From contig JAGVXY010000014.1 in assembly GCA_018303545.1 (NCBI GenBank), forward strand, positions 1 to 40,263: DNA of 40,263 nt, written 5' to 3'. Positions within the stretch are counted from its first letter, which is position 1. Each line of letters opens with the position of its first letter. Source of the DNA: Candidatus Woesearchaeota archaeon. GTDB lineage: Archaea > Nanobdellota > Nanobdellia > SCGC-AAA011-G17 > JAGVXY01. The notes beneath the pieces are model-generated. The model had not been told where the DNA came from. It did not search any database and saw nothing but the letters and a program-made list of their open reading frames with translations. Positions 1,187-32,059 of the stretch are shown here, piece by piece. The position numbers and the translations under genes are program-made.

Positions 1187-2610
1187 AATCTAAGCAAGAG
1201 ATAGTTACAGAATTGATAAAAGCAGGTGTATTAATTACTCCTGACTTTCTTCAGAATAATTTAATAGATGAAAATCTATTAAATTCTTATACTAAAATAG
1301 AAACAATTCCGGAGGATGAAAGCAATAACCTTATTGATGTTAAAACAAAGGTAGAAATAATATTTAATTATAATAAAGCAACAAAGAAAAAGGACATATC
1401 TCATTTTGTTTCATATTTTAGAAAAAGGTATGAAACATTAAGTAATCTGCTAATGAGAAGGCCTGAATTGGCAAATGTAATTTCTATAAATAGATTATGG
1501 AACAAACAATTGAAAGAAACAGTTGCTATAATTGGTTTAGTAAGCAGTAAGGAAGAGACAAAGAATGGACATTTTATATTGGAAATAGAAGATTTAACAG
1601 GAAAAATAAAAGTTCTAATTAATAAAGAGAGAAAAGAAATTGCTAAAAATATCATTTTAGATGAAGTAATCGGGGTTATAGGTTCAATAGGAGATAAAAT
1701 TGTTTTTTCTAGCGAAATAATTTATCCAGATGTACCTTTAACAAAAGAACTAAAAAAATCTCCTGATGAAATTTGCGCGGCCTTCATTTCTGATATTCAT
1801 GTTGGGTCTAAAATGTTTCTTCCTGAAGATTTTGAGCGATTTATTGATTGGCTTAACGGAAATGTCGGTTCAGAAAAACAAAAACAATTTGCAAGACGAA
1901 TAAAATACCTTTTTGTGGCCGGAGACATTGTTGATGGCGTTGGAATTTATCCTTCACAGGAGAACGAATTAAATATAAAAGATATTGCAGAACAATATAA
2001 AACCTGTGCTGAATATTTGAATAAAATAAGAAAAGATGTGCATATAATCATCTGTCCGGGAAATCACGATGCCGTAAGAATAGGTGAACCACAACCGGCA
2101 TTAATAAATCAATTTACTGAACCCTTGACAAAAATGAGCAATGTTATTTTAGTTAGCAATCCTGCAATCATAAATATACATAAAACAGATTATTTTCCGG
2201 GATTTGATGTGCTTATGTATCATGGATATAGTTTTGACAGCTATGTTTCAAATGTTGATTCAATAAGAGAAGGGGGAGGATATGACAGAGCAGATTTGAT
2301 AATGAAATTTTTATTACAAAAGAGACATCTAGCTCCAACATATGCATCAACACTATATTTCATGGATAATGAAGAGGATCCATTAATCATAAAAACTGTC
2401 CCTGATTTTTTTGTTACAGGCCACATTCATAAAACTAATGTAAGCAATTATAATAATATTTCTTTAATATGCGGAAGCTGCTGGCAATCAAAGACAAATT
2501 TTCAGGAAAAAGTAGGACATAACCCTGAACCTTCTAGGGTGCCTGTAGTAAATTTGAAAACGAGAGAAATAAAAATTCTGAGGTTTGGTAATGAAAACTT
2601 ATTTCAATAG
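1183..2610 (+). CDS. polB: DNA polymerase D small subunit DP1 (exonuclease subunit)
   Basis: Small subunit of the archaeal replicative polymerase PolD, which carries the Mre11-like 3'-5' proofreading phosphoesterase. The calcineurin-like metal motifs are all visible: SDIHVG with D204 and H206, GDIVDG with D248, GNHD at 293-296, a later MYHGYSFD, and GHIH at 413-416. An OB-fold region precedes them (about residues 105-180). The N-terminal 100 residues are the usual variable segment. The length of 475 residues is slightly short of thermococcal DP1 but complete. The start ATG overlaps the cdc6 stop by 4 nt and the 3' end overlaps the DP2 start, indicating translational coupling. All metal ligands are present, so proofreading activity is expected. 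Confidence 0.95.
   Translation: MKSKQEIVTELIKAGVLITPDFLQNNLIDENLLNSYTKIETIPEDESNNLIDVKTKVEIIFNYNKATKKKDISHFVSYFRKRYETLSNLLMRRPELANVISINRLWNKQLKETVAIIGLVSSKEETKNGHFILEIEDLTGKIKVLINKERKEIAKNIILDEVIGVIGSIGDKIVFSSEIIYPDVPLTKELKKSPDEICAAFISDIHVGSKMFLPEDFERFIDWLNGNVGSEKQKQFARRIKYLFVAGDIVDGVGIYPSQENELNIKDIAEQYKTCAEYLNKIRKDVHIIICPGNHDAVRIGEPQPALINQFTEPLTKMSNVILVSNPAIINIHKTDYFPGFDVLMYHGYSFDSYVSNVDSIREGGGYDRADLIMKFLLQKRHLAPTYASTLYFMDNEEDPLIIKTVPDFFVTGHIHKTNVSNYNNISLICGSCWQSKTNFQEKVGHNPEPSRVPVVNLKTREIKILRFGNENLFQ
2580..2584 (+). promoter_or_regulatory. Shine-Dalgarno that sets the DP2 start
   Basis: GAGGT lies inside the end of the DP1 gene, followed by a 6-nt spacer and the ATG at 2591. A TTG two codons upstream (2585) is in frame, but the SD placement favours the ATG. 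Confidence 0.75.
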
Positions 2611-5600
2611 AATAAATGCAGGTGTAAAAAGCTGCTATGATGTAGCACAAGATATTAAAGATTTGGGAATAGATCCAGATAAAACCTGCATTCCTTTGGC
2701 AAAGAATATGGCTGAAAGAGTAGAAGGACTAATTTCTGTAATAATGCCACAAATAAAAAATTCAGGTGTTGTAGAAAGAATTGGTGATTTGGAAAAACAA
2801 CACGGCGTACAGGACTGGAGAATTTCTATGCAAATTGCCTTAGAAGTTGCGCAAGAAAAATTCTGTAAATTTAAAGATAAAAGAGAAGCAATGGAAACAG
2901 GAATGAGGGTGGGTCTTGCATATATAACCAACGGGGTTGTTTCTTCTCCTCTTGAGGGGTTTGTCAAATTAGAAATAAGAAAGAGAAAAGACGGAAAAGA
3001 ATATTTTGCACTTTTTTTCTCTGGACCAATTAGAAGTGCCGGAACTACTGCCACATGTGTTTTTGCCGCAGTGTGTGATTATATTCGAGTTAATATGGGA
3101 TACGAACCTTATGATCCAAGTGAGATAGAAGTTAAAAGAATGGTTACAGAACTTTATGATTTTCATGAAAGGGTAACAAACCTACAATATCTCCCAAGTG
3201 AGCAGGAAATTTCCTTTATGGTTAGTCATTTGCCTCTGCAGATTGATGGAGATCCTTCTGAAAAATTTGAGGTTAGCAATTATAAAGATTTGCCAAGAAT
3301 AGAAACAAATAGGTTAAGAAATGGAGTGTGTCTTGTAATTGGAGAAGGGTTAACTCAAAAAGGAAAAAAATTCTGGACAAAGTTTTCTAAATGGTGTAAA
3401 GATTTCAATATGGAACATTGGATATTTATGGAAGAATTTGTAAAATTGCAAAGTGAAATAAAATCAAAGCTTGCAAAAGCTAAAACAACAAGCGAAGCAA
3501 AAGTTTCTCCTGATGGAACTTACTTGAAAGATTTGGTGGGAGGCAGACCTATTTTTGCATATCCTTTGGCTAATGGAGGGTTTAGATTAAGATATGGAAG
3601 ATGCAGAACATCGGGATTTTCTTCTGATGCAATACATCCTGCAACTATGGTTGTACTAGATGAATTTTTAGCAATAGGGTCCCAATTAAGGACAGAAAGA
3701 CCGGGAAAATCCACAACATTGTCTGCATGCGATTATATGGAGGGCCCTATCGTAAAGTTAAAAGACGGAACTGTAATTTACCTAGAATCGGCAGAGCAGG
3801 CAAAAAGTGTTTTAAAGAATATACAAGAAATAATCTATTTGGGAGATATACTAATTAATTATGGCGATTTCTTAAACAGAGGACATACCTTGTTACCAGC
3901 AGGTTTCTGTGAAGAATGGTGGATACTTTATTTAAAAAAATATCTTAATGAAAGCAATTACAAAGTCAATGAGGAACTGCTTGAAAATCCGATAAAATAT
4001 AAAATTCCTGTAGAAGATGCAGTGAAAATCTCTTTAGATACAAAAATACCTTTTCATCCAAGATATACTTATCATTGGAAAAATATTCGTTTTGATCAAT
4101 TTAAAATGTTTTTAGACTGGATTGTTAAATCTGTGGTAAATCATGAGAAAGGAAAAGTTGTGAAGATAATTTTACCTTATGAAGAGGAACCAAAGAGGAT
4201 AATGGAATTACTTGGAATCCCTCATAAAGCTATAGGAAAAGAATATGTTATTCTTGAAAAAAATGAAGCCTTTGCATTAGCTTTTCAATTAGGTTTCAAT
4301 GAAAGCATGACTAATTTTGCAAGATTTCAAGAGGTCATAGAAGGATTACCCTTGGAGATTGTCAATCGGTTGTGCCCAGTTATAGTAAAGGATAAATCAG
4401 GATATTTTATTGGTGCAAGAATGGGGAGGCCTGAAAAAGCAAAGATGCGAAAAATGACCGGGGATCCTCATGGGCTATTTAGTATTGGAAAAGAAGGAGG
4501 CAGATTAAGATCCATACAATCTGCATTAGAAATTGGCAAAGTGAAAGCAGACTATCCTGTTTATTTTTGTAATTCCTGCGCTGCCGAAACAATATATCCT
4601 ATATGTGATCAATGTGGCAGTAAGACTACAAAGAAACATTATTGCATAAACTGCGATAAACTAATTGATGGAGAAAAATGCGGAGATCATAAGGTTGCTA
4701 GCTTCAAGAAACAGGAAATTGATATTTCAAGATATTTCAGAAGTGCTATGAAATTAGCCGGTTTGTTGAATGCTCCAAAATTAATTAAAGGGATAAGGGG
4801 TTCAAGCAATAAAGATGCGACACCCGAACATTTGCTAAAAATGATTTTGAGAGCAAAAAATAATATTTTTGTGAATAAAGAAGGAACGACGAGATATGAT
4901 ATGTCTGAGATGACAATAACTCATTTTAAACCCAAAGAGATAGGAACGTCAATCGAGAAACTTAAAGAGATTGGATACGAGAAAGATATATACGGCAAAG
5001 AACTTACTGAGATAAATCAGATATTAGAATTAAGATGCCAGGATGTCATTCTCCCAGGAATAGAAGATGGGACTGATGAGCCAGCAAGCAAGGTCTTTTT
5101 TAGGATTGCTTTATTTATAGATGAATTATTGGTTAACCTATACAAAAAAGAACCATTTTACAAATTGAAAACTGAATATGACATTGTGGGCCATTTGGGT
5201 ATTGCTTTGAGCCCACACACTTCTGCTGGAATTGTTGTTAGAATAATAGGATTTTCTAAGACACAAGGGTTTTTAGCTCATCCTTTATTGCACAGCATTA
5301 TGAGGAGAGATTGTTTAGCTTATGAAACTAGACTGCCGATTTTTGACGGTAAGAAGTGGTCTTTTACAGAAATCGGAAAAGTTGTTGAGAAATTAAATCC
5401 AATAAAAAAAGTTGATTTATTCGGAACTAAAGCAGTAAAAGTAAAAGGATATAAAACATTGGGATTTGATTCTGAATCTAAGTGCATAAAAGAAGTTAAA
5501 ATAATAGACTTCACCAAGCATATTAAAAGTAAAATTTTGAAAATTACCTTGGAAGATGGACGAATAATCAGAACAACTAAAGATCATAAATTCTGCGTGA

Positions 5601-7507
5601 ATGAAAATGGAAAAATAACTAAGAAATTTGCAGCTGATTTTAAAATAAGCGATGAGGTTTTGATTTCACCCAATATAGGACTTACTGAAAAAAATATTCA
5701 ATCTCTTAACTTATTTGATATCTTTAAGGGCAGATCAGATGTCATGGTAAAGGGGATTTCTAACCAGATTCAAAAGATTGTTGAACAATTAGGTAGCCGT
5801 TCAAGAACAAGACAACTATTGCATGTAAATAAATCTCTTTTAGACAATTCTTTACTACGAGACAGTTTTTCTCTTGATTTTGTTGAGCAGATCTCTCAAT
5901 TTTATAAGCTGGATTTGAGCAAAGCTAAATTATTTGCCAAATGGGATAATGTTTTGATTGAACCCATTATTAATCTGGACAAAAATCTCTTATGGTTAAT
6001 TGGATTATATATCGCAGAAGGATTTTCAAGAAAGAAGATTATCGGTAAGGGTTACTACCAAGTTGATTTTGCTGCTTCGGAAAAAGAGATAAGAGGAAAA
6101 ATAGTAAATATTTGTTTTAGATATTTTGGGCTTAAACCAAGTTATATCAATAAAGAACGGGTAACTTTCTCAAGCAGATTGTTATATGAACTGTTCATGA
6201 ATCATTTACAATGCGGTTCAAACGCCCAAGAAAAGAGAGTTCCTTCTTTGATATTTACATTACCCAAAGATAAGTTAGGATATTTTTTGACAGGCTATTT
6301 TGATGGTGATGGCTCTGTAAGCTTGACTGACGCAAGAGTTACCTGCGATTCAATAAGCGATGAATTAATCTTTGGACTTGAATTATGTCTTGCCCAATTT
6401 GGAATTTATACTCGAAGATACTATTATAAAAAAGAACCAGGCCCGAAAGTCAGAGAATTTTATATTAAAAAACAAAGAAAAATACCTAAATTTGGAATTA
6501 CTAAATTAATTTTTACAAGCACATATGTAACTACTTTTTTTAGAGAAATTGGATTTGGGCTTAAAAGAAAACAAAAAATATTAGAAGAGGTTGTCAAAAA
6601 GACAAGGCCTTATGGAATGAAAATCAAGCATAATGATATGTATGTTTATCCCAAAATTATTTCAATCGAGGAAGACGGTGAGGAAGAAACCTATTGCTTG
6701 AATGTTGAAGGGCATAAGATTATTCCTAACAATATAATGACTTATCAATGCGATGGTGATGAAGCTGGGGTTATGCTTTTAATGGATGCCTTATTAAATT
6801 TTTCAAGGCAATTTCTACCAAACAGAAGAGGTGTTACACAGGATGCACCTTTGGTCTTGACTTCTAATTTAATACCATCTGAAGTAGATGATATGGTATT
6901 TGATATGGACGTTGCCTGGGATTATCCTTTGGAATTCTATGAGGCCGCTGAACAATTTAAGAAACCTTATGAGGTAAAAATAGAAAGATATGGAGATAAT
7001 TTGAATAAACCTAAGCAATATGAGGGTCTAGGATTTACTCATCACACAACAGACATAAATGAAGGAGTTAGAGTAAGTGCTTATAAGACCATACCTTCAA
7101 TGGGCGAGAAGGTTGCTAAGCAAATGGCATTAGCTGAAAAAATAAGGGCAGTAGATGAATCTGATGTGGCAAGACTGCTTATAGAGAGACATTTCTTACG
7201 GGACATAAAAGGTTGCTTGAGAAAATATTCTCAGCAGCAGCTTAGATGCGTTAATTGCAATGAGATTCTTAGAAGGGTGCCTTTAGCTGGAAAATGTCCT
7301 AAGTGCGGCGGAAAGATAATCTTTACGATCCCAGAAGGGTCTGTCGTTAAGTATTTGGACTATTCCTTACAATTGGCCAAGAACTACAAACTTTCTCCTT
7401 ATTTAAATCAGACTTTAGCAATATTGAAAGACAGAATAGACTCGGTGTTTGGAGTTGATCCTGAAAAACAGGTTTGTTTAGGAAACTGGTGCCAAAAACA
7501 AGCTTAA
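2591..7507 (+). CDS. polC: DNA polymerase D large subunit DP2, intein-containing precursor
   Basis: Catalytic subunit of archaeal PolD, made as a 1638-residue precursor. Removing the 479-residue intein (residues 908-1386) leaves a 1159-residue DP2, a normal size. Extein landmarks are the N-terminal RIxAG-like start, a Cys-rich zinc module with repeated CxxC pairs near residues 655-700, the catalytic DGDE segment immediately after the intein, and a C-terminal CVNC...CPKCGG zinc ribbon. In characterised DP2 the two aspartates of this DGD motif are the polymerase catalytic residues, so the enzyme is inactive until splicing occurs. I see no clear PIP box at the extreme C-terminus. The gene overlaps DP1 by 20 nt. 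Its stop overlaps the end of the convergent gene at 7504. Confidence 0.96.
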   Translation: MKTYFNRINAGVKSCYDVAQDIKDLGIDPDKTCIPLAKNMAERVEGLISVIMPQIKNSGVVERIGDLEKQHGVQDWRISMQIALEVAQEKFCKFKDKREAMETGMRVGLAYITNGVVSSPLEGFVKLEIRKRKDGKEYFALFFSGPIRSAGTTATCVFAAVCDYIRVNMGYEPYDPSEIEVKRMVTELYDFHERVTNLQYLPSEQEISFMVSHLPLQIDGDPSEKFEVSNYKDLPRIETNRLRNGVCLVIGEGLTQKGKKFWTKFSKWCKDFNMEHWIFMEEFVKLQSEIKSKLAKAKTTSEAKVSPDGTYLKDLVGGRPIFAYPLANGGFRLRYGRCRTSGFSSDAIHPATMVVLDEFLAIGSQLRTERPGKSTTLSACDYMEGPIVKLKDGTVIYLESAEQAKSVLKNIQEIIYLGDILINYGDFLNRGHTLLPAGFCEEWWILYLKKYLNESNYKVNEELLENPIKYKIPVEDAVKISLDTKIPFHPRYTYHWKNIRFDQFKMFLDWIVKSVVNHEKGKVVKIILPYEEEPKRIMELLGIPHKAIGKEYVILEKNEAFALAFQLGFNESMTNFARFQEVIEGLPLEIVNRLCPVIVKDKSGYFIGARMGRPEKAKMRKMTGDPHGLFSIGKEGGRLRSIQSALEIGKVKADYPVYFCNSCAAETIYPICDQCGSKTTKKHYCINCDKLIDGEKCGDHKVASFKKQEIDISRYFRSAMKLAGLLNAPKLIKGIRGSSNKDATPEHLLKMILRAKNNIFVNKEGTTRYDMSEMTITHFKPKEIGTSIEKLKEIGYEKDIYGKELTEINQILELRCQDVILPGIEDGTDEPASKVFFRIALFIDELLVNLYKKEPFYKLKTEYDIVGHLGIALSPHTSAGIVVRIIGFSKTQGFLAHPLLHSIMRRDCLAYETRLPIFDGKKWSFTEIGKVVEKLNPIKKVDLFGTKAVKVKGYKTLGFDSESKCIKEVKIIDFTKHIKSKILKITLEDGRIIRTTKDHKFCVNENGKITKKFAADFKISDEVLISPNIGLTEKNIQSLNLFDIFKGRSDVMVKGISNQIQKIVEQLGSRSRTRQLLHVNKSLLDNSLLRDSFSLDFVEQISQFYKLDLSKAKLFAKWDNVLIEPIINLDKNLLWLIGLYIAEGFSRKKIIGKGYYQVDFAASEKEIRGKIVNICFRYFGLKPSYINKERVTFSSRLLYELFMNHLQCGSNAQEKRVPSLIFTLPKDKLGYFLTGYFDGDGSVSLTDARVTCDSISDELIFGLELCLAQFGIYTRRYYYKKEPGPKVREFYIKKQRKIPKFGITKLIFTSTYVTTFFREIGFGLKRKQKILEEVVKKTRPYGMKIKHNDMYVYPKIISIEEDGEEETYCLNVEGHKIIPNNIMTYQCDGDEAGVMLLMDALLNFSRQFLPNRRGVTQDAPLVLTSNLIPSEVDDMVFDMDVAWDYPLEFYEAAEQFKKPYEVKIERYGDNLNKPKQYEGLGFTHHTTDINEGVRVSAYKTIPSMGEKVAKQMALAEKIRAVDESDVARLLIERHFLRDIKGCLRKYSQQQLRCVNCNEILRRVPLAGKCPKCGGKIIFTIPEGSVVKYLDYSLQLAKNYKLSPYLNQTLAILKDRIDSVFGVDPEKQVCLGNWCQKQA
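5312..6748 (+). other. Intein with LAGLIDADG endonuclease in DP2 (pol-II active-site position)
   Basis: In-frame 479-residue insertion between HSIMRRD and CDGDE. It starts with Cys1 (CLAYETRLP). Block B is TLEDGRIIRTTKDHKF, with the expected TxxH. Two DOD homing-endonuclease motifs follow, LIGLYIAEG (about 5995-6021) and LTGYFDGDG (about 6285-6311), both keeping their acidic residue. It ends ...NNIMTYQ before extein Cys+1. The terminal residue is Gln instead of Asn and the penultimate is Tyr instead of His. Gln-terminated inteins at this DP2 site are known (for example in Pyrococcus abyssi), so splicing is still likely. The boundaries are read from the two split halves of the conserved MRRD-C-DGDE sequence. 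Confidence 0.93.
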
Positions 7508-14543: not shown

Positions 14544-15314
14544 ATGGAAGTAGATATTGATTTATCCAAAAATATTGAACAAAATGCAGAGTTCTATTAT
14601 GAGAATGCAAAGAAGGCAAAAAGGAAAATAGAAAACACTGAAAAAGCGCTAGCTAAAACTAGAGAGAAATATAATATTTTATTAGAGAAGAAAGAGCTTG
14701 CAATTTCGCAGGTTAAGGTTAAAGAAAAAAAAGTAATTAAAGATAAGAAATGGTATCATAATTTTAGATGGTTCTTTTCATCTGAGGATTTTTTAGTTGT
14801 TGGCGGAAGAGATGCGACAACAAATGACATCATCATCAAAAAATACCTCGATAAAGGGGACCTTGTTTTTCATACAGAACTTGCAGGAAGCCCATTTTTT
14901 GTAATTAAATCTCTTGGCAAGGAGATTGGAAAGAAAACAATCGAAGAAGCGGCACAGGCTACAGCATTATATTCTAGGGCATGGAGGACCGGTGCTGGAA
15001 CAGCAGATGTTTATTGTATAAGTCCAGATCAAGTAAAAAAAGAATTAGGGCTGCCAAAAGGGGCATTTATGATTTATGGAAAAAGGAATTACTTTAGACC
15101 TGTACTTGAAATGGCAATTGGTAATGTAAATGGAGAAATTATTGGTGGCCCAATAGATTCTGTGAAAACAAAGACAAACAAGTATGTTATTCTAAAACCC
15201 GGAGATATCAAACCAGGACAATTGATTAAAAATATTAGGGCAAAAATTGAAGGCGATTTGGAAGAAATACAAAAATTCCTACCTCCGGGCAATAGTTCTT
15301 TACCTGGAAAATAG
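14544..15314 (+). CDS. NFACT-R (DUF814) protein, RqcH C-terminal-half homologue
   Basis: 256 residues. Residues about 10-75 form a Lys/Glu-rich coiled coil (CC-M-like), then an NFACT-R RNA-binding domain starts at WYHNFRWFFSSEDFLVVGGRDA and continues through FHTELAGSPF and TALYSRAWRTG. Full-length archaeal/bacterial RqcH (Rqc2, FbpA family), which acts on obstructed large ribosomal subunits and directs C-terminal tail synthesis, is about 550-670 residues and has an N-terminal NFACT-N domain with the DxR motif. That half is absent here and not encoded just upstream. The start has a TTTTTTAAATTTAC TATA box about 26 nt upstream, so this is not a 5'-truncated frame. Either the protein is split genome-wide or it is a stand-alone RNA-binding form. 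Confidence 0.88.
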   Translation: MEVDIDLSKNIEQNAEFYYENAKKAKRKIENTEKALAKTREKYNILLEKKELAISQVKVKEKKVIKDKKWYHNFRWFFSSEDFLVVGGRDATTNDIIIKKYLDKGDLVFHTELAGSPFFVIKSLGKEIGKKTIEEAAQATALYSRAWRTGAGTADVYCISPDQVKKELGLPKGAFMIYGKRNYFRPVLEMAIGNVNGEIIGGPIDSVKTKTNKYVILKPGDIKPGQLIKNIRAKIEGDLEEIQKFLPPGNSSLPGK

Positions 15315-25977: not shown

Positions 25978-26967
25978 ATGACCAAAAAACTAGTAAAAAT
26001 AACAAGAGAAACAGGAATCCCCCTAGTTGGGGCTATTATGTTTGGAGTAATTGATAGAGGGACCAATTTGCTGCAGATAAGGGCGACAACAATTTGTCCA
26101 TTAAATTGTATCTATTGTTCTGTTGATGCAGGCCTTAAATCCAAAACGAGGAGGACTGATTATCAAGTGGATATTGAATACCTGATACAATGGGTGAAAG
26201 AGGTGATAAAACAGAAAGATTGCACTGAAATAGAAGCAAATATTGATTCTGTAGGTGAACCCTTAGCACATCCAGATGTAACTAAACTCGTTGCGGAATT
26301 GAAAAAAATAAACGAAATAAAAAGAATATCTATACAAACAAATGGTGTTTTGCTTACGAAGAGGTTAGTTGATGAATTGGAGAAATACGGACTTGATCAA
26401 ATAAACTTATCATTTAATACGTTCGATAATGAACAAGGAAAATTTCTTTCTGGGTGCCAAGATTATAATTTAGATAAAATCATTGAAATGGCTCATTATA
26501 TCGCTAAATCAAAAATTACTCTTTTAATTGCTCCCGTCTGGATTGGAAAACTGAATCAGGAAGAGATGCCAAAAATGATTAAATTTGCAAAAGAAATTGG
26601 CGCAAAATTAGGAATACAAAAATATGAAAAGTATAAATTGGGCCGGGGTCCCAAAGAAGTGAAACAAGAGTCATGGTGGAAATTCTTTAATGCACTTAAG
26701 AAATGGGAAAATGAATTTGATGCCAAGCTAAAACTCTCTGCAAATGATTTTGCAATTAGAAAAACTAAATCTCTGCCTTTAGTTATTGATAAAAATGATA
26801 AAATAAATGCAACAATTGTCTGTGACGGCTGGATGAATGGCCAAATGATTGCATCTGCAAGAAATAGATGTATAACTGTTGAAAAATGCGATAAAAATAT
26901 TGGGGACAAAGTAAATGTTAAAATACTTGAAAATAAAAATAATATTTACCTTGGCGAGATGATATGA
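25978..26967 (+). CDS. Radical SAM protein (COG2100-like)
   Basis: 329 residues. The [4Fe-4S] motif is C40-x3-C44-x2-C47 (CPLNCIYC), with GEPLAHPD supplying the usual GEP segment and IQTNGVLLT the next conserved strand. The C-terminal ~60 residues (ASARNRCITVEKCDKNIGDKVNV) look like a small beta-barrel RNA-binding domain of TRAM/OB type. This domain order matches an archaeal radical SAM family often annotated as uncharacterised Fe-S oxidoreductase. The coupling to tRNA/rRNA methyltransferase genes immediately downstream (ATGA overlap) suggests an RNA-modification role, which is inference. Confidence 0.82.
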   Translation: MTKKLVKITRETGIPLVGAIMFGVIDRGTNLLQIRATTICPLNCIYCSVDAGLKSKTRRTDYQVDIEYLIQWVKEVIKQKDCTEIEANIDSVGEPLAHPDVTKLVAELKKINEIKRISIQTNGVLLTKRLVDELEKYGLDQINLSFNTFDNEQGKFLSGCQDYNLDKIIEMAHYIAKSKITLLIAPVWIGKLNQEEMPKMIKFAKEIGAKLGIQKYEKYKLGRGPKEVKQESWWKFFNALKKWENEFDAKLKLSANDFAIRKTKSLPLVIDKNDKINATIVCDGWMNGQMIASARNRCITVEKCDKNIGDKVNVKILENKNNIYLGEMI

Positions 26968-28049
26968 AAGCAATAGGAATTACGGTATTTGGAATGGAAG
27001 ATATTGCCATACAAGAGATGAAAGATTTTGGTTTTAGGGCTGAAAAAATTTCAGGGGGAAGAATTGAAATTGAAGTAAAAAAAGTTGAAGAAATCTATGC
27101 TATAGCTTATAGGACAAGGGGATTACATCTCATATATCAGTTTTTAGATAAAGTTAATTTTTCTTCATTGGATGAACTTAAAATTTGTGCTGAAAATATT
27201 GATATTTCTATAGTGGGTAAATTTAAGGTTCAATGCCACCGCACAGGAAAGCATGAATTTAATTCTATGGAAGTTGAAAAGATTATTGGAGAGGCATTTT
27301 ATGAAAAAGGGCATAAGGTTGATTTGAAGAATCCAGAAACAATTGTTTTTGCTGATATAATTGAAGGAATGTGCTTTTTTGGTATAGCCGTTACAGATTT
27401 TACACTAAGCAAGAGAGATTACAGAATAAAATCTGTGCAAGAGGGGATAAATGCGGCATTAGCATATTGTGTGGTGCGGGAAAATTGGAATAAAAAAGAA
27501 ATTCTTTTAGATCCCTTCTGTAAGGACGGGGTGGTAATAATCGAAGCGGCTTCTTATGCACTTAATTTACCTTCGGGATATTTCAGAAAAAGAGATTTTA
27601 AATTATTCAAAACATTTGATTTTAGCAAAATTGATGCTAAAATTGAAAATAAAAAATTAAATGTTTTTGGCTGCGATCCTTTGCTCCATAACGTCAGAGA
27701 CTGCGAAATACATTCGAAACTTGCAAATGTGAATAAAAATATGGAATTTTCTAGAGTGGATACTGAATGGCTTGATACAAAATATAAAGAAAAATCTGTT
27801 GATAAAGTAATAACTGTTCCCCCATATATGATAAAGAAGATAGGTGAAAGAGGATTATCTAAAATATATGATGAATTCTTTTTTCAACTTGAATTCATTT
27901 TAAAAGATGATGGAAAAATTATTTTCATTGCTCATGGAAAAAGTTTGCTTGAAGAAGCAGCTAAAAAATACAAATTTACTATAAAAAACGAGAAAGAGGC
28001 AGCTATTGGGGAAACCATTTATAAAATATTGACTTTTGAAAAATGTTAG
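26964..28049 (+). CDS. THUMP-domain RNA methyltransferase homologue with altered catalytic motif
   Basis: 361 residues. A THUMP-like RNA-binding N-terminal domain (about 30-150) precedes a Rossmann methyltransferase domain, as in archaeal tRNA guanine-N2 methyltransferases of the Trm-G10/Trm14 type (COG0116/COG1041). In those enzymes motif I is DPFCGSGT-like and motif IV is (N/D)PPY, with the Asn or Asp catalytic. Here they read DPFCKDGV (183-190) and TVPPY (284-288): the motif I glycine is Lys and the motif IV Asn/Asp is Val. Catalysis may be lost or the protein may have a new role. It overlaps the radical SAM gene (ATGA) and the next methyltransferase gene by 7 nt, so all three are translationally coupled. 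Confidence 0.8.
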   Translation: MKAIGITVFGMEDIAIQEMKDFGFRAEKISGGRIEIEVKKVEEIYAIAYRTRGLHLIYQFLDKVNFSSLDELKICAENIDISIVGKFKVQCHRTGKHEFNSMEVEKIIGEAFYEKGHKVDLKNPETIVFADIIEGMCFFGIAVTDFTLSKRDYRIKSVQEGINAALAYCVVRENWNKKEILLDPFCKDGVVIIEAASYALNLPSGYFRKRDFKLFKTFDFSKIDAKIENKKLNVFGCDPLLHNVRDCEIHSKLANVNKNMEFSRVDTEWLDTKYKEKSVDKVITVPPYMIKKIGERGLSKIYDEFFFQLEFILKDDGKIIFIAHGKSLLEEAAKKYKFTIKNEKEAAIGETIYKILTFEKC

Positions 28050-28849
28050 TTGACGATATTATTAAAAAGAAAGAACTGAAAGATTTGAATAAAGAATTTG
28101 TTTCAAATGAATTGAGAGAATATCTGAAAAGAAATAAAATTGAAGAAATACCCAATGAGAAATCTGCAAAATATAAAAAAATAGTAAAAGATATAAGAAA
28201 AAAGTTCAGAGAGATATATGGGGTTTATAAAACAAGATATAGCGGAGATGTTGCAGAATTTATTTCTTCAATGCGAGATTTTAAAAGCTTTAAGGAGAAC
28301 TCTAATGAAATATTAAAAGCGCATACTTCAACATTAGAAAGAAGACCTTATTATGAAGAAATATACTCTAAACTTTTTGATGGCGAAACTTCTATTATTG
28401 ATTTGGGCTGCGGTTTGAATCCTTTTTCAATTCCTTGTATGCCTAGAATTAAAAAATATTTTGCAGCAGATTTCAATATCAGTGAAATACATCTATTAAA
28501 CGATTATTTTAAAATCGCTTCCAAGTATTACCCCGGTTTTGAAGGATTTGCAGAAGTAATTGACTTAAGGAAATTGGAGTTTAAGCTACCGCATATGGAA
28601 ATGTGCTTTTTGTTTAAGATATTGGATGTAATTGAGAAAAAAGGGCACAAACATGCTGAAAGACTTATTGAAAAAATTCCAGCCAATAAAATCATCGTAA
28701 GTTTTCCAACAAAAACACTTTCACAGAAGAAAATGAATTATCCAAGAAGAAAATGGATTGAACTTATGGCCCAGAGATTAGGATATAAAATGGAGTCTTT
28801 TGAAGCCAAAAATGAAATATTCTATACCCTTAAAAAGCCCGAATTTTGA
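28043..28849 (+). CDS. ArmA/FmrO-like 16S rRNA methyltransferase homologue
   Basis: 268 residues. The layout matches the m7G1405 16S rRNA methyltransferases that give aminoglycoside resistance (Arm family: ArmA, RmtB, Sgm, FmrO). A helical Lys-rich N-terminal domain (1-90) is followed by the signature HTSTLER at 94-100, a SAM-binding motif DLGCGLNPFSI at 120-130, MCFLFKILDVIEKK at 187-200 and SFPTKTLS at 220-227, each with a direct counterpart in ArmA. The relation is by motif order and wording, recalled and not computed. In bacteria the enzymes act on the 30S decoding site; the archaeal target is unknown. It overlaps the THUMP gene. The neighbourhood is RNA modification, so a housekeeping role is also possible. 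Confidence 0.78.
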   Translation: MLVDDIIKKKELKDLNKEFVSNELREYLKRNKIEEIPNEKSAKYKKIVKDIRKKFREIYGVYKTRYSGDVAEFISSMRDFKSFKENSNEILKAHTSTLERRPYYEEIYSKLFDGETSIIDLGCGLNPFSIPCMPRIKKYFAADFNISEIHLLNDYFKIASKYYPGFEGFAEVIDLRKLEFKLPHMEMCFLFKILDVIEKKGHKHAERLIEKIPANKIIVSFPTKTLSQKKMNYPRRKWIELMAQRLGYKMESFEAKNEIFYTLKKPEF

Positions 28850-30703: not shown

Positions 30704-30799
30704 ATTACTGTTAAATAGAAGAACTATTTATGATTTTATCGCAAATTTTTCGGATTTTAATGAAGAAATAATATAAAGCTAGCTTTTGATATGAAATCG

Positions 30800-32059
30800 A
30801 TGTTAAAATATTTACCTATCTTATTTATATTTATGTCTTTAGCCAATGCGCAAGTGCAGCTTTCAGAGGTTTTGCCTGATCCGGCAGGAAGCGATACAGG
30901 CAATGAATGGATAGAGCTGTACAATTCCGAGAATATCCCCATTATTTTGGACAATTATTCATTAAGAGATGAGTCTACAAAAATTTTCAAATTAAACAAT
31001 ATGACTATTTTAAATCTAAGTTATCTTGTAGTATTTCCCACATTCACATTGAATAATGACGCAGATTCTGTTTTTCTTTATTATAATGGAACAATAATAG
31101 ATAGTATGACATATCCCCAATCTAAAGAAAATATTTCATTTTCATTTGTCAATGGAAACTGGACTGAAACTATACCTACACCGGGAACAGAAAATTATAT
31201 TGATTTAAATTGCGATTTTTCTGTAAAGATTATCGCTGAAGATATTCAGGGAGACTTTAGTTTTAAAATATATGTTGAAAGGATTAAAGGATTTAATGGT
31301 AATTTAAGTTTGTTTAGAATAGTACAAACACCTTATGGGGAAATAATAGAGAAATATAATCAATTAAATTTAACGGTTATAACTCATAAGACTATTGAAA
31401 ATTCACCTAGTCTTGAAAATGGCAAAGCCTATTTAATCAATGCTTCAATAATTACAGAATGCAATGATTCTAATCTGGAAAACAATAATGCAATTGAACT
31501 TGTATTCTTGAGGGGAGAGAATGAATTTTCATTGGATGTGCCTTATGCAAGAATTACTCAAGTATATGGAAAAAGATATGAATTTGGAGATACTCTTCGA
31601 GTGCGAGTTAGTATAAATAAAGGCACTTCAAATAAAAGGGCTATTACGCTTAGTGTGGAAAATTTAAGCGTAAAAAATTCTTTTCAAAGTTACACAAAAA
31701 GTCCGCAGGATTTTGAGATATATCTAAAACTGCCCGATGAATGCGAAAAGAAATCTAAAACTGGAAATTATACCCTGAGATTGGAAGCCTTTGGGGCGAT
31801 GGATAGAAGAATAATAGAAGTATTTTCCAATAAAACTTGTAATAGTGAACAAACAGAGAATATAGCCGTAAAATATGAATCGGGGCCTTGTGAGGTGAAT
31901 TTTACCGAAAACATTATAAATATTGGTATAAATTTCTCAACATTAGAAGTCATTTATGAATCAGCACAGGTAAAGGCTAAAAATATGGGCGTTTACGCGT
32001 TTAGTGGTCTTATTTTGATGCTGTTAACTGGATTAGTAATATGGAAGAAAAGCTTTTAG
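30800..32059 (+). CDS. Lamin-tail-domain surface protein
   Basis: 419 residues with a signal peptide (LKYLPILFIFMSLANA). The mature protein begins with a lamin-tail domain: QLSEVLPDPAGSD, EWIELYN and LDNYSLRDE, continuing to about residue 125. The rest is beta-rich, with Cys pairs and N-glycosylation-type sequons. One C-terminal transmembrane helix (FSGLILMLLTGLVIW) and a KKSF tail complete it. Lamin-tail domains occur in secreted archaeal and bacterial proteins attached to the envelope or DNA. The start at 30800 has a TATA (ATATAAAG) 25 nt upstream, while the ATG three codons earlier (30791) does not fit as well. Confidence 0.78.
   Translation: MLKYLPILFIFMSLANAQVQLSEVLPDPAGSDTGNEWIELYNSENIPIILDNYSLRDESTKIFKLNNMTILNLSYLVVFPTFTLNNDADSVFLYYNGTIIDSMTYPQSKENISFSFVNGNWTETIPTPGTENYIDLNCDFSVKIIAEDIQGDFSFKIYVERIKGFNGNLSLFRIVQTPYGEIIEKYNQLNLTVITHKTIENSPSLENGKAYLINASIITECNDSNLENNNAIELVFLRGENEFSLDVPYARITQVYGKRYEFGDTLRVRVSINKGTSNKRAITLSVENLSVKNSFQSYTKSPQDFEIYLKLPDECEKKSKTGNYTLRLEAFGAMDRRIIEVFSNKTCNSEQTENIAVKYESGPCEVNFTENIINIGINFSTLEVIYESAQVKAKNMGVYAFSGLILMLLTGLVIWKKSF

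What the first reader, a model, noticed from the sequence alone, without database searches (positions are those of the whole stretch)
28043..28849. Archaeal homologue of ArmA/FmrO aminoglycoside-resistance methyltransferases
Motif order HTSTLER - DLGCGLNP - LFKILDVIEKK - SFPTKTLS follows the bacterial m7G1405 16S methyltransferases. Those are known from actinomycete producers and resistance plasmids, so an archaeal DPANN member in a core RNA-modification gene run is unexpected and could represent an ancestral housekeeping form, perhaps modifying a different rRNA position.
Basis: partly seen in the sequence, partly recalled or inferred. Interest (0 to 1): 0.75.

Follow-up and report, generated by a model that had tools for sequence, protein, structure and literature searches.

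The report
Archaeal branch of ArmA-type rRNA methyltransferases
This gene encodes an archaeal relative of the enzymes that make bacteria resistant to aminoglycosides by methylating the ribosome; in these tiny archaea it looks like an old, inherited ribosome-care enzyme, and it persists even in a few species whose ribosome has lost the exact base the bacterial enzymes methylate.

Summary
The ORF at 28043-28849 is a real member of the ArmA/Rmt/Sgm (Pfam FmrO) family: sequence, profile and predicted fold all rank the known m7G1405 16S methyltransferases first by a wide margin, with the N-terminal helical domain and catalytic residues present. An archaeal homologue is not new: Podar et al. 2013 reported it in Nanoarchaeum and Nst1. 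New here: (1) it occurs in 173 of 371 sampled genomes of the phylum, nearly always once; (2) archaeal sequences form one clade (100/99) apart from all bacterial ones, mostly follow family lines and are under purifying selection; (3) the bacterial side is also wide (29 of 151 Chloroflexota), so 'producers and plasmids only' is wrong; (4) in relatives the gene often directly follows pelota (8 loci) or a Dim2/Pno1-like KH factor (4), a ribosome setting; in the window it overlaps Trm14; (5) position 1405 is A (A1405-U1496 in the six read at both bases) in at least seven relatives; three of the six with known enzyme status keep an intact enzyme. Best reading: a housekeeping 30S methyltransferase of the decoding region, probably N7 of G1405 where G is present. 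The exact target is unproven; point 5 keeps a shifted or relaxed target alive. 'Ancestral' is not shown.

The parts
28043..28849 (+). FmrO/Rmt/Arm-family 16S rRNA methyltransferase homologue, 268 aa, single copy in the genome
28043..28375 (+). N-terminal helical domain (residues 1-111; helices 2-6, 17-30, 42-62, 70-75, 80-91, 95-111)
   Evidence: AlphaFold2 model, mean pLDDT 91.8; hhalign to RmtC aligns from RmtC residue 6
28322..28342 (+). HTSTLER, residues 94-100; H94, S96, E99, R100 conserved in archaeal and bacterial homologues (R100 = Sgm R108)
28400..28423 (+). SAM-binding motif I DLGCGLNP, residues 120-127
28607..28627 (+). FLFKILD, residues 189-195; K192 conserved (= Sgm K199); D195 is archaeal-type, bacteria have P (98%)
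28700..28756 (+). SFPTKTLSQKKMNYPRRKW, residues 220-238; archaeal-type linker (R236, W238) in place of bacterial KGMxxxY
28814..28816 (+). E258, conserved (= Sgm E267)
26964..28049 (+). Upstream gene, Trm14-like tRNA (guanine-N2) methyltransferase with THUMP domain; overlaps the FmrO gene by 7 bases, so probably translationally coupled (inference)

Best explanation
A chromosomal, mostly vertically inherited SAM-dependent 16S rRNA methyltransferase of a DPANN archaeon. Its N-terminal helical domain docks on the assembled or nearly assembled 30S subunit, as in RmtC; the Rossmann domain then methylates N7 of a purine in the decoding region of helix 44, most likely G1405 where G is present. Its role is ribosome maturation or decoding fidelity, not drug resistance. 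Shown by computation: family membership, fold, conserved catalytic residues, distribution, separate archaeal clade, ribosome-linked neighbourhood in relatives. Inferred: 30S substrate, N7 chemistry, position 1405, cellular role.
For: Profile and fold hits lead only to m7G1405 enzymes. Sgm residues R108, G135, D156, D182, K199, E205 and E267 (picked from memory as important for Sgm) are all identical in the window protein: R100, G124, D143, D174, K192, E198, E258. Present in 173/371 genomes of the phylum, 123/243 of the good ones. Archaeal sequences are one clade at 100/99 with most family codes grouped. dN/dS about 0.05-0.14 in the pairs that could be measured. Of 25 tightly linked upstream genes in 41 loci, 8 are pelota, 4 Dim2/Pno1-like KH proteins, 1 uS10, 1 RNA 3'-cyclase/Rcl1-like and 1 Trm14. 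G1405 is in the exact conserved context in 156 of the 161 genomes readable with the two exact motifs.
Against: Three relatives (G011, G030, G224) keep an enzyme with intact catalytic motifs although their 16S has A1405-U1496. Enzyme presence does not track the state of 1405 (Fisher p = 1, but only five A cases). The archaeal clade differs from bacteria at positions beside the catalytic lysine and in the linker after SF. I know of no report of m7G in DPANN 16S, and the window's own genome has no assembled 16S.
Confidence: 0.62

Rival explanations
1. Same fold and 30S substrate, but the archaeal clade methylates another decoding-region base (for example G1401, G1494 or G1497, unchanged in the A1405 genomes), or accepts either purine at 1405.
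For: Enzyme with intact catalytic motifs in three lineages with A1405-U1496; for G224 the 16S is closest to its own family mate, so mis-binning is unlikely there. Clade-specific residues D195, R236 and W238 next to the catalytic lysine and in the linker.
Against: All seven catalytic or cofactor residues checked are kept. A1405 is rare (5 of 161), so most enzyme-bearing genomes with a readable 16S do have G1405 (82 of 85). The A1405 genomes could be on the way to losing the gene.
Confidence: 0.22
2. A methyltransferase of another RNA (tRNA or 23S) that kept the family fold; the overlap with Trm14 would reflect joint tRNA modification.
For: In the window the gene overlaps Trm14, a tRNA methyltransferase.
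Against: Among the linked upstream genes Trm14 occurs only in the window; pelota and Dim2/Pno1 recur across several families. The N-terminal domain of the 30S-acting bacterial enzymes is kept.
Confidence: 0.09
3. A 30S assembly factor whose binding matters more than its methylation, comparable to the non-catalytic role of KsgA/Dim1.
For: Linked to Dim2/Pno1 and pelota in relatives; catalysis at 1405 as G would be impossible in the A1405 genomes.
Against: Catalytic motifs are conserved across archaea and bacteria, also in the A1405 genomes. Presence is not associated with absence of a strong KsgA/Dim1 (p = 0.11).
Confidence: 0.05
4. A mobile aminoglycoside-resistance gene recently acquired from bacteria.
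For: The family is best known for resistance (PMC12406665).
Against: Archaea and bacteria are cleanly split; present in about half the phylum, nearly always single copy; no match among viral contigs; in the plasmid collection only distant bacterial Rmt/ArmA genes; flanked by core archaeal genes.
Confidence: 0.02

Closest known systems
Sgm (Micromonospora) m7G1405 16S methyltransferase, PDB 3lcu/3lcv
   Same: Best structural match (TM about 0.78) and best profile match; all seven Sgm residues checked are identical.
   Different: About 22% identity over the structural alignment; no producer cluster; archaeal D195 and R236/W238 linker in place of P and KGMxxxY.
RmtC, RmtF, RmtE, RmtB, ArmA (acquired m7G1405 enzymes)
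   Same: Full-length homology including the N-terminal helical domain; HxSxxER, D-x5-NP, K192 and E258 shared.
   Different: About 20-31% identity; chromosomal, mostly vertical, no mobile context; score below the NCBIfam Rmt equivalog cut-off.
Nanoarchaeum equitans / Nst1 'rRNA (guanine(1405)-N(7))-methyltransferase' (Podar 2013, PMC3655853)
   Same: Archaeal homologue already noted and named there as shared with Bacteria.
   Different: That paper gave two genomes and no further analysis; here the branch is followed across the phylum.
Chloroflexota chromosomal FmrO homologues
   Same: Same family, chromosomal, wide in the phylum (29/151).
   Different: They lie on the bacterial side of the tree.

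Membership tests
Pfam PF07091 FmrO / Arm-Rmt family | Profile score above the curated cut-off | tested here: met
   65.4 bits against 27
Pfam PF07091 FmrO / Arm-Rmt family | Class I SAM fold preceded by the family's N-terminal helical domain | tested here: met
   Model pLDDT 91.8; Foldseek top 16 all family members; hhalign to RmtC 6-280
Pfam PF07091 FmrO / Arm-Rmt family | Catalytic and cofactor residues (Sgm R108, D156, D182, K199, E205, E267; list from memory) | tested here: met
   All identical in the window protein
NCBIfam Rmt 16S rRNA (guanine(1405)-N(7))-methyltransferase equivalog (NF000466) | Score above the equivalog cut-off of 250 bits | tested here: not met
   123.8 bits; so not filed as an Rmt enzyme proper
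m7G1405 16S rRNA methyltransferase (function) | Substrate base G1405 present in the organism | tested here: inconclusive
   Own 16S not assembled; G1405 in most relatives, A1405 in three relatives that have the enzyme
m7G1405 16S rRNA methyltransferase (function) | Methylates N7 of G1405 in 30S | not testable with these tools
   needs biochemistry
Acquired aminoglycoside-resistance determinant | Mobile or producer-cluster context | tested here: not met
   Context is chromosomal core genes
Acquired aminoglycoside-resistance determinant | Confers aminoglycoside resistance | not testable with these tools
   needs biochemistry
KsgA/Dim1 substitute | Occurs where a strong KsgA/Dim1 is missing | tested here: not met
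   Own genome has KsgA/Dim1 (E 1.8e-35); no inverse association over 344 genomes

The most novel reading that the evidence does not exclude
DPANN archaea hold a distinct, phylum-wide housekeeping branch of the aminoglycoside-resistance methyltransferase family whose decoding-centre target is no longer strictly G1405: several lineages replaced G1405-C1496 by A1405-U1496 and some kept an intact enzyme, so the branch modifies another decoding-site base or either purine at 1405.
Probability: 0.25. Interest if true: 0.75.

Novelty: new variant of a known kind. Interest (0 to 1): 0.5.

Why it matters
Resistance methyltransferases of the ArmA/Rmt type are usually discussed as coming from antibiotic producers (PMC12406665). 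A wide, non-mobile archaeal branch, together with a wide Chloroflexota branch, suggests that the family has a housekeeping side tied to the ribosome. The A1405-U1496 relatives give a natural test of whether the archaeal enzymes really need G1405, at a base pair of the decoding site usually taken as fixed.

Tried and rejected
Viral contigs: no relative of the window protein. Plasmids: only distant bacterial Rmt/ArmA genes. Asgard archaea: 1 of 119, a 6.9-kb contig labelled Njordarchaeum whose gene falls inside the Chloroflexota clade, read as contamination. Replacement of KsgA/Dim1: rejected, no inverse association. Correlation of enzyme presence with G1405: none, but only five A cases, so low power. 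Own-genome 16S: not in the assembly. Conserved synteny of the window's own neighbours (Trm14, Hjc, radical SAM): not found among the frequent neighbours in 40 relatives. Papers on the Sgm structure, the RmtC-30S structure and N. equitans 16S mapping were not in the library, so the roles of Sgm residues and 30S docking by RmtC are from memory, apart from the PDB entry titles.

Full report
Observation. The ORF at 28043-28849 (+) encodes 268 residues and starts 7 bases inside the end of the upstream gene. All quoted motifs are there. The protein matches Pfam FmrO at E 7e-18, above the curated cut-off, and the NCBIfam Rmt model at 7.5e-36 but below its equivalog cut-off. Against solved structures the only solid hits are Sgm, RmtC, RmtF, RmtB and ArmA.

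Structure. AlphaFold2 on 46 archaeal homologues gives mean pLDDT 91.8 and pTM 0.87. Foldseek against the PDB ranks sixteen m7G1405-enzyme chains first (best 3.9e-17, TM 0.78); the next match, an unrelated methyltransferase, has TM 0.45. Seven Sgm residues recalled as important are identical in the window protein.

Distribution. The family is in 40 of 61 relatives and 173 of 371 genomes drawn from the phylum, 123 of 243 among the better ones, almost always once. Asgard archaea have it in 1 of 119, apparently contamination. None of the 14 named control genomes has it. On the bacterial side one scan of the genome collection found 430 loci; the best 80 are mostly Chloroflexota, with Defluviitaleaceae, Oscillospiraceae, Lachnospiraceae and others. 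In Chloroflexota 29 of 151 genomes carry it. That scan was driven by one conserved pattern and confirmed against RmtE, so it is not an even sample.

Tree. With 48 archaeal and 31 bacterial sequences the two domains are separated by a branch with support 100/99 found in all bootstrap trees. A quick tree of 98 sequences agrees, except for two divergent archaeal paralogues that are drawn beside the bacteria. Most family codes group together, as expected of vertical inheritance, but f4 and f8 are split, so some transfer or paralogy occurred. The window protein sits beside family f30 of another order (83/80), so its own history may include a transfer within the phylum. The tree has no root, so it fits either great age or one early transfer. 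Measured pairs show dN/dS of 0.05-0.14; several other pairs were saturated.

Neighbourhood. In the window the gene follows a radical SAM gene and Trm14, and is followed by a histone-fold ORF, Hjc and an AmmeMemoRadiSam enzyme. This arrangement does not recur among the frequent neighbours in 40 relatives. There, 25 upstream genes (the window included) are tightly linked in the same direction, mostly overlapping: 8 are pelota, 4 are Dim2/Pno1-like KH proteins, and single cases are uS10, an RNA 3'-cyclase/Rcl1-like protein and Trm14. Downstream a TrmB-type regulator is commonest (7 of 26). The upstream set points to ribosome maturation or rescue (inference).

Target base. The window's genome has no 16S in its assembly. 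In 27 relatives with a readable decoding site, 24 have G1405 and three (G011, G018, G030) have A1405 with U1496, a compensated pair. Exact motif scans of the phylum found G1405 in 156 genomes and A1405 in five; the other genomes could not be classed this way. A scan of the whole order added G661, making seven A1405 genomes. All six A1405 sequences read on both sides have U1496. Of the six with known enzyme status, three have the enzyme (G011, G030, G224) and three do not (G018, G241, G291); the catalytic motifs in the three are intact. Enzyme presence is 82 of 156 with G1405 and 3 of 5 with A1405 in the common sample (p = 1). Mis-binned 16S is a standard worry in such assemblies. For G224 the 16S is closest to its family mate G336 and the contig is 34 kb, which speaks against it; G011 and G030 are less clear.

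Archaeal signatures. Comparing 59 archaeal and 84 bacterial sequences, twelve positions are shared above 90%, including H94, S96, E99, R100, D120, G124, N126, K192 and E258. Others separate the domains: D195 (bacteria P), R236 and W238 in archaea against KGMxxxY in bacteria in the linker after SF, and a fixed H in bacteria at position 56. These lie next to the catalytic lysine and in a linker that may face the RNA (inference), which would fit a different ribosome or a different base. The bacterial set is dominated by Chloroflexota, so its 100% values are inflated.

What is known. Podar et al. [quoted passage not shown] I found no later paper in the library that follows this up. The novelty is therefore the extent, clade structure, context and the 1405 census, not the existence of an archaeal homologue. 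That the window belongs to the same phylum as Nanoarchaeum is my inference from gene content and genome size; the genomes searched are unnamed.

Verdict. A sound observation, an interpretation that is partly right, and one new tension: the enzyme outlives its textbook target base in a few lineages.

Noticed in passing
L200, L206, L209, L221-L223, L230 (relatives' 16S): Decoding-site pair G1405-C1496 replaced by A1405-U1496 in several families of the phylum; the 1496 side was not read for L230 (G661).
   Followed up: partly
L211 (G021) and L212 (G016): 16S rRNA has an insertion, probably an intron, directly before TGCCCGTCA, beside the decoding site.
   Followed up: no
window 2585-7507: DNA polymerase D large subunit carries an intein with a LAGLIDADG homing domain.
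   Followed up: no
window 14544-15314: RqcH-like protein of only 256 aa matching the C-terminal 40% of RqcH, without most of the NFACT-N part.
   Followed up: no
L032, L040; genomes G088, G268, G315 (family f39): A second, divergent FmrO paralogue that is drawn beside the bacteria in the quick tree.
   Followed up: partly
genomes G385, G390, G391: Two FmrO genes close together in Longilinea, Bellilinea and an Aminicenantes genome.
   Followed up: no
phylum sample: A strong KsgA/Dim1 match (E below about 1e-20) is found in only about 70 of 343 genomes, although the enzyme is called almost universal; the window's genome has one.
   Followed up: partly
L135: Contig labelled Njordarchaeum guaymaensis with a Chloroflexota-type FmrO gene, likely contamination.
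   Followed up: partly
window 30791-32059: Protein with a lamin tail domain.
   Followed up: no
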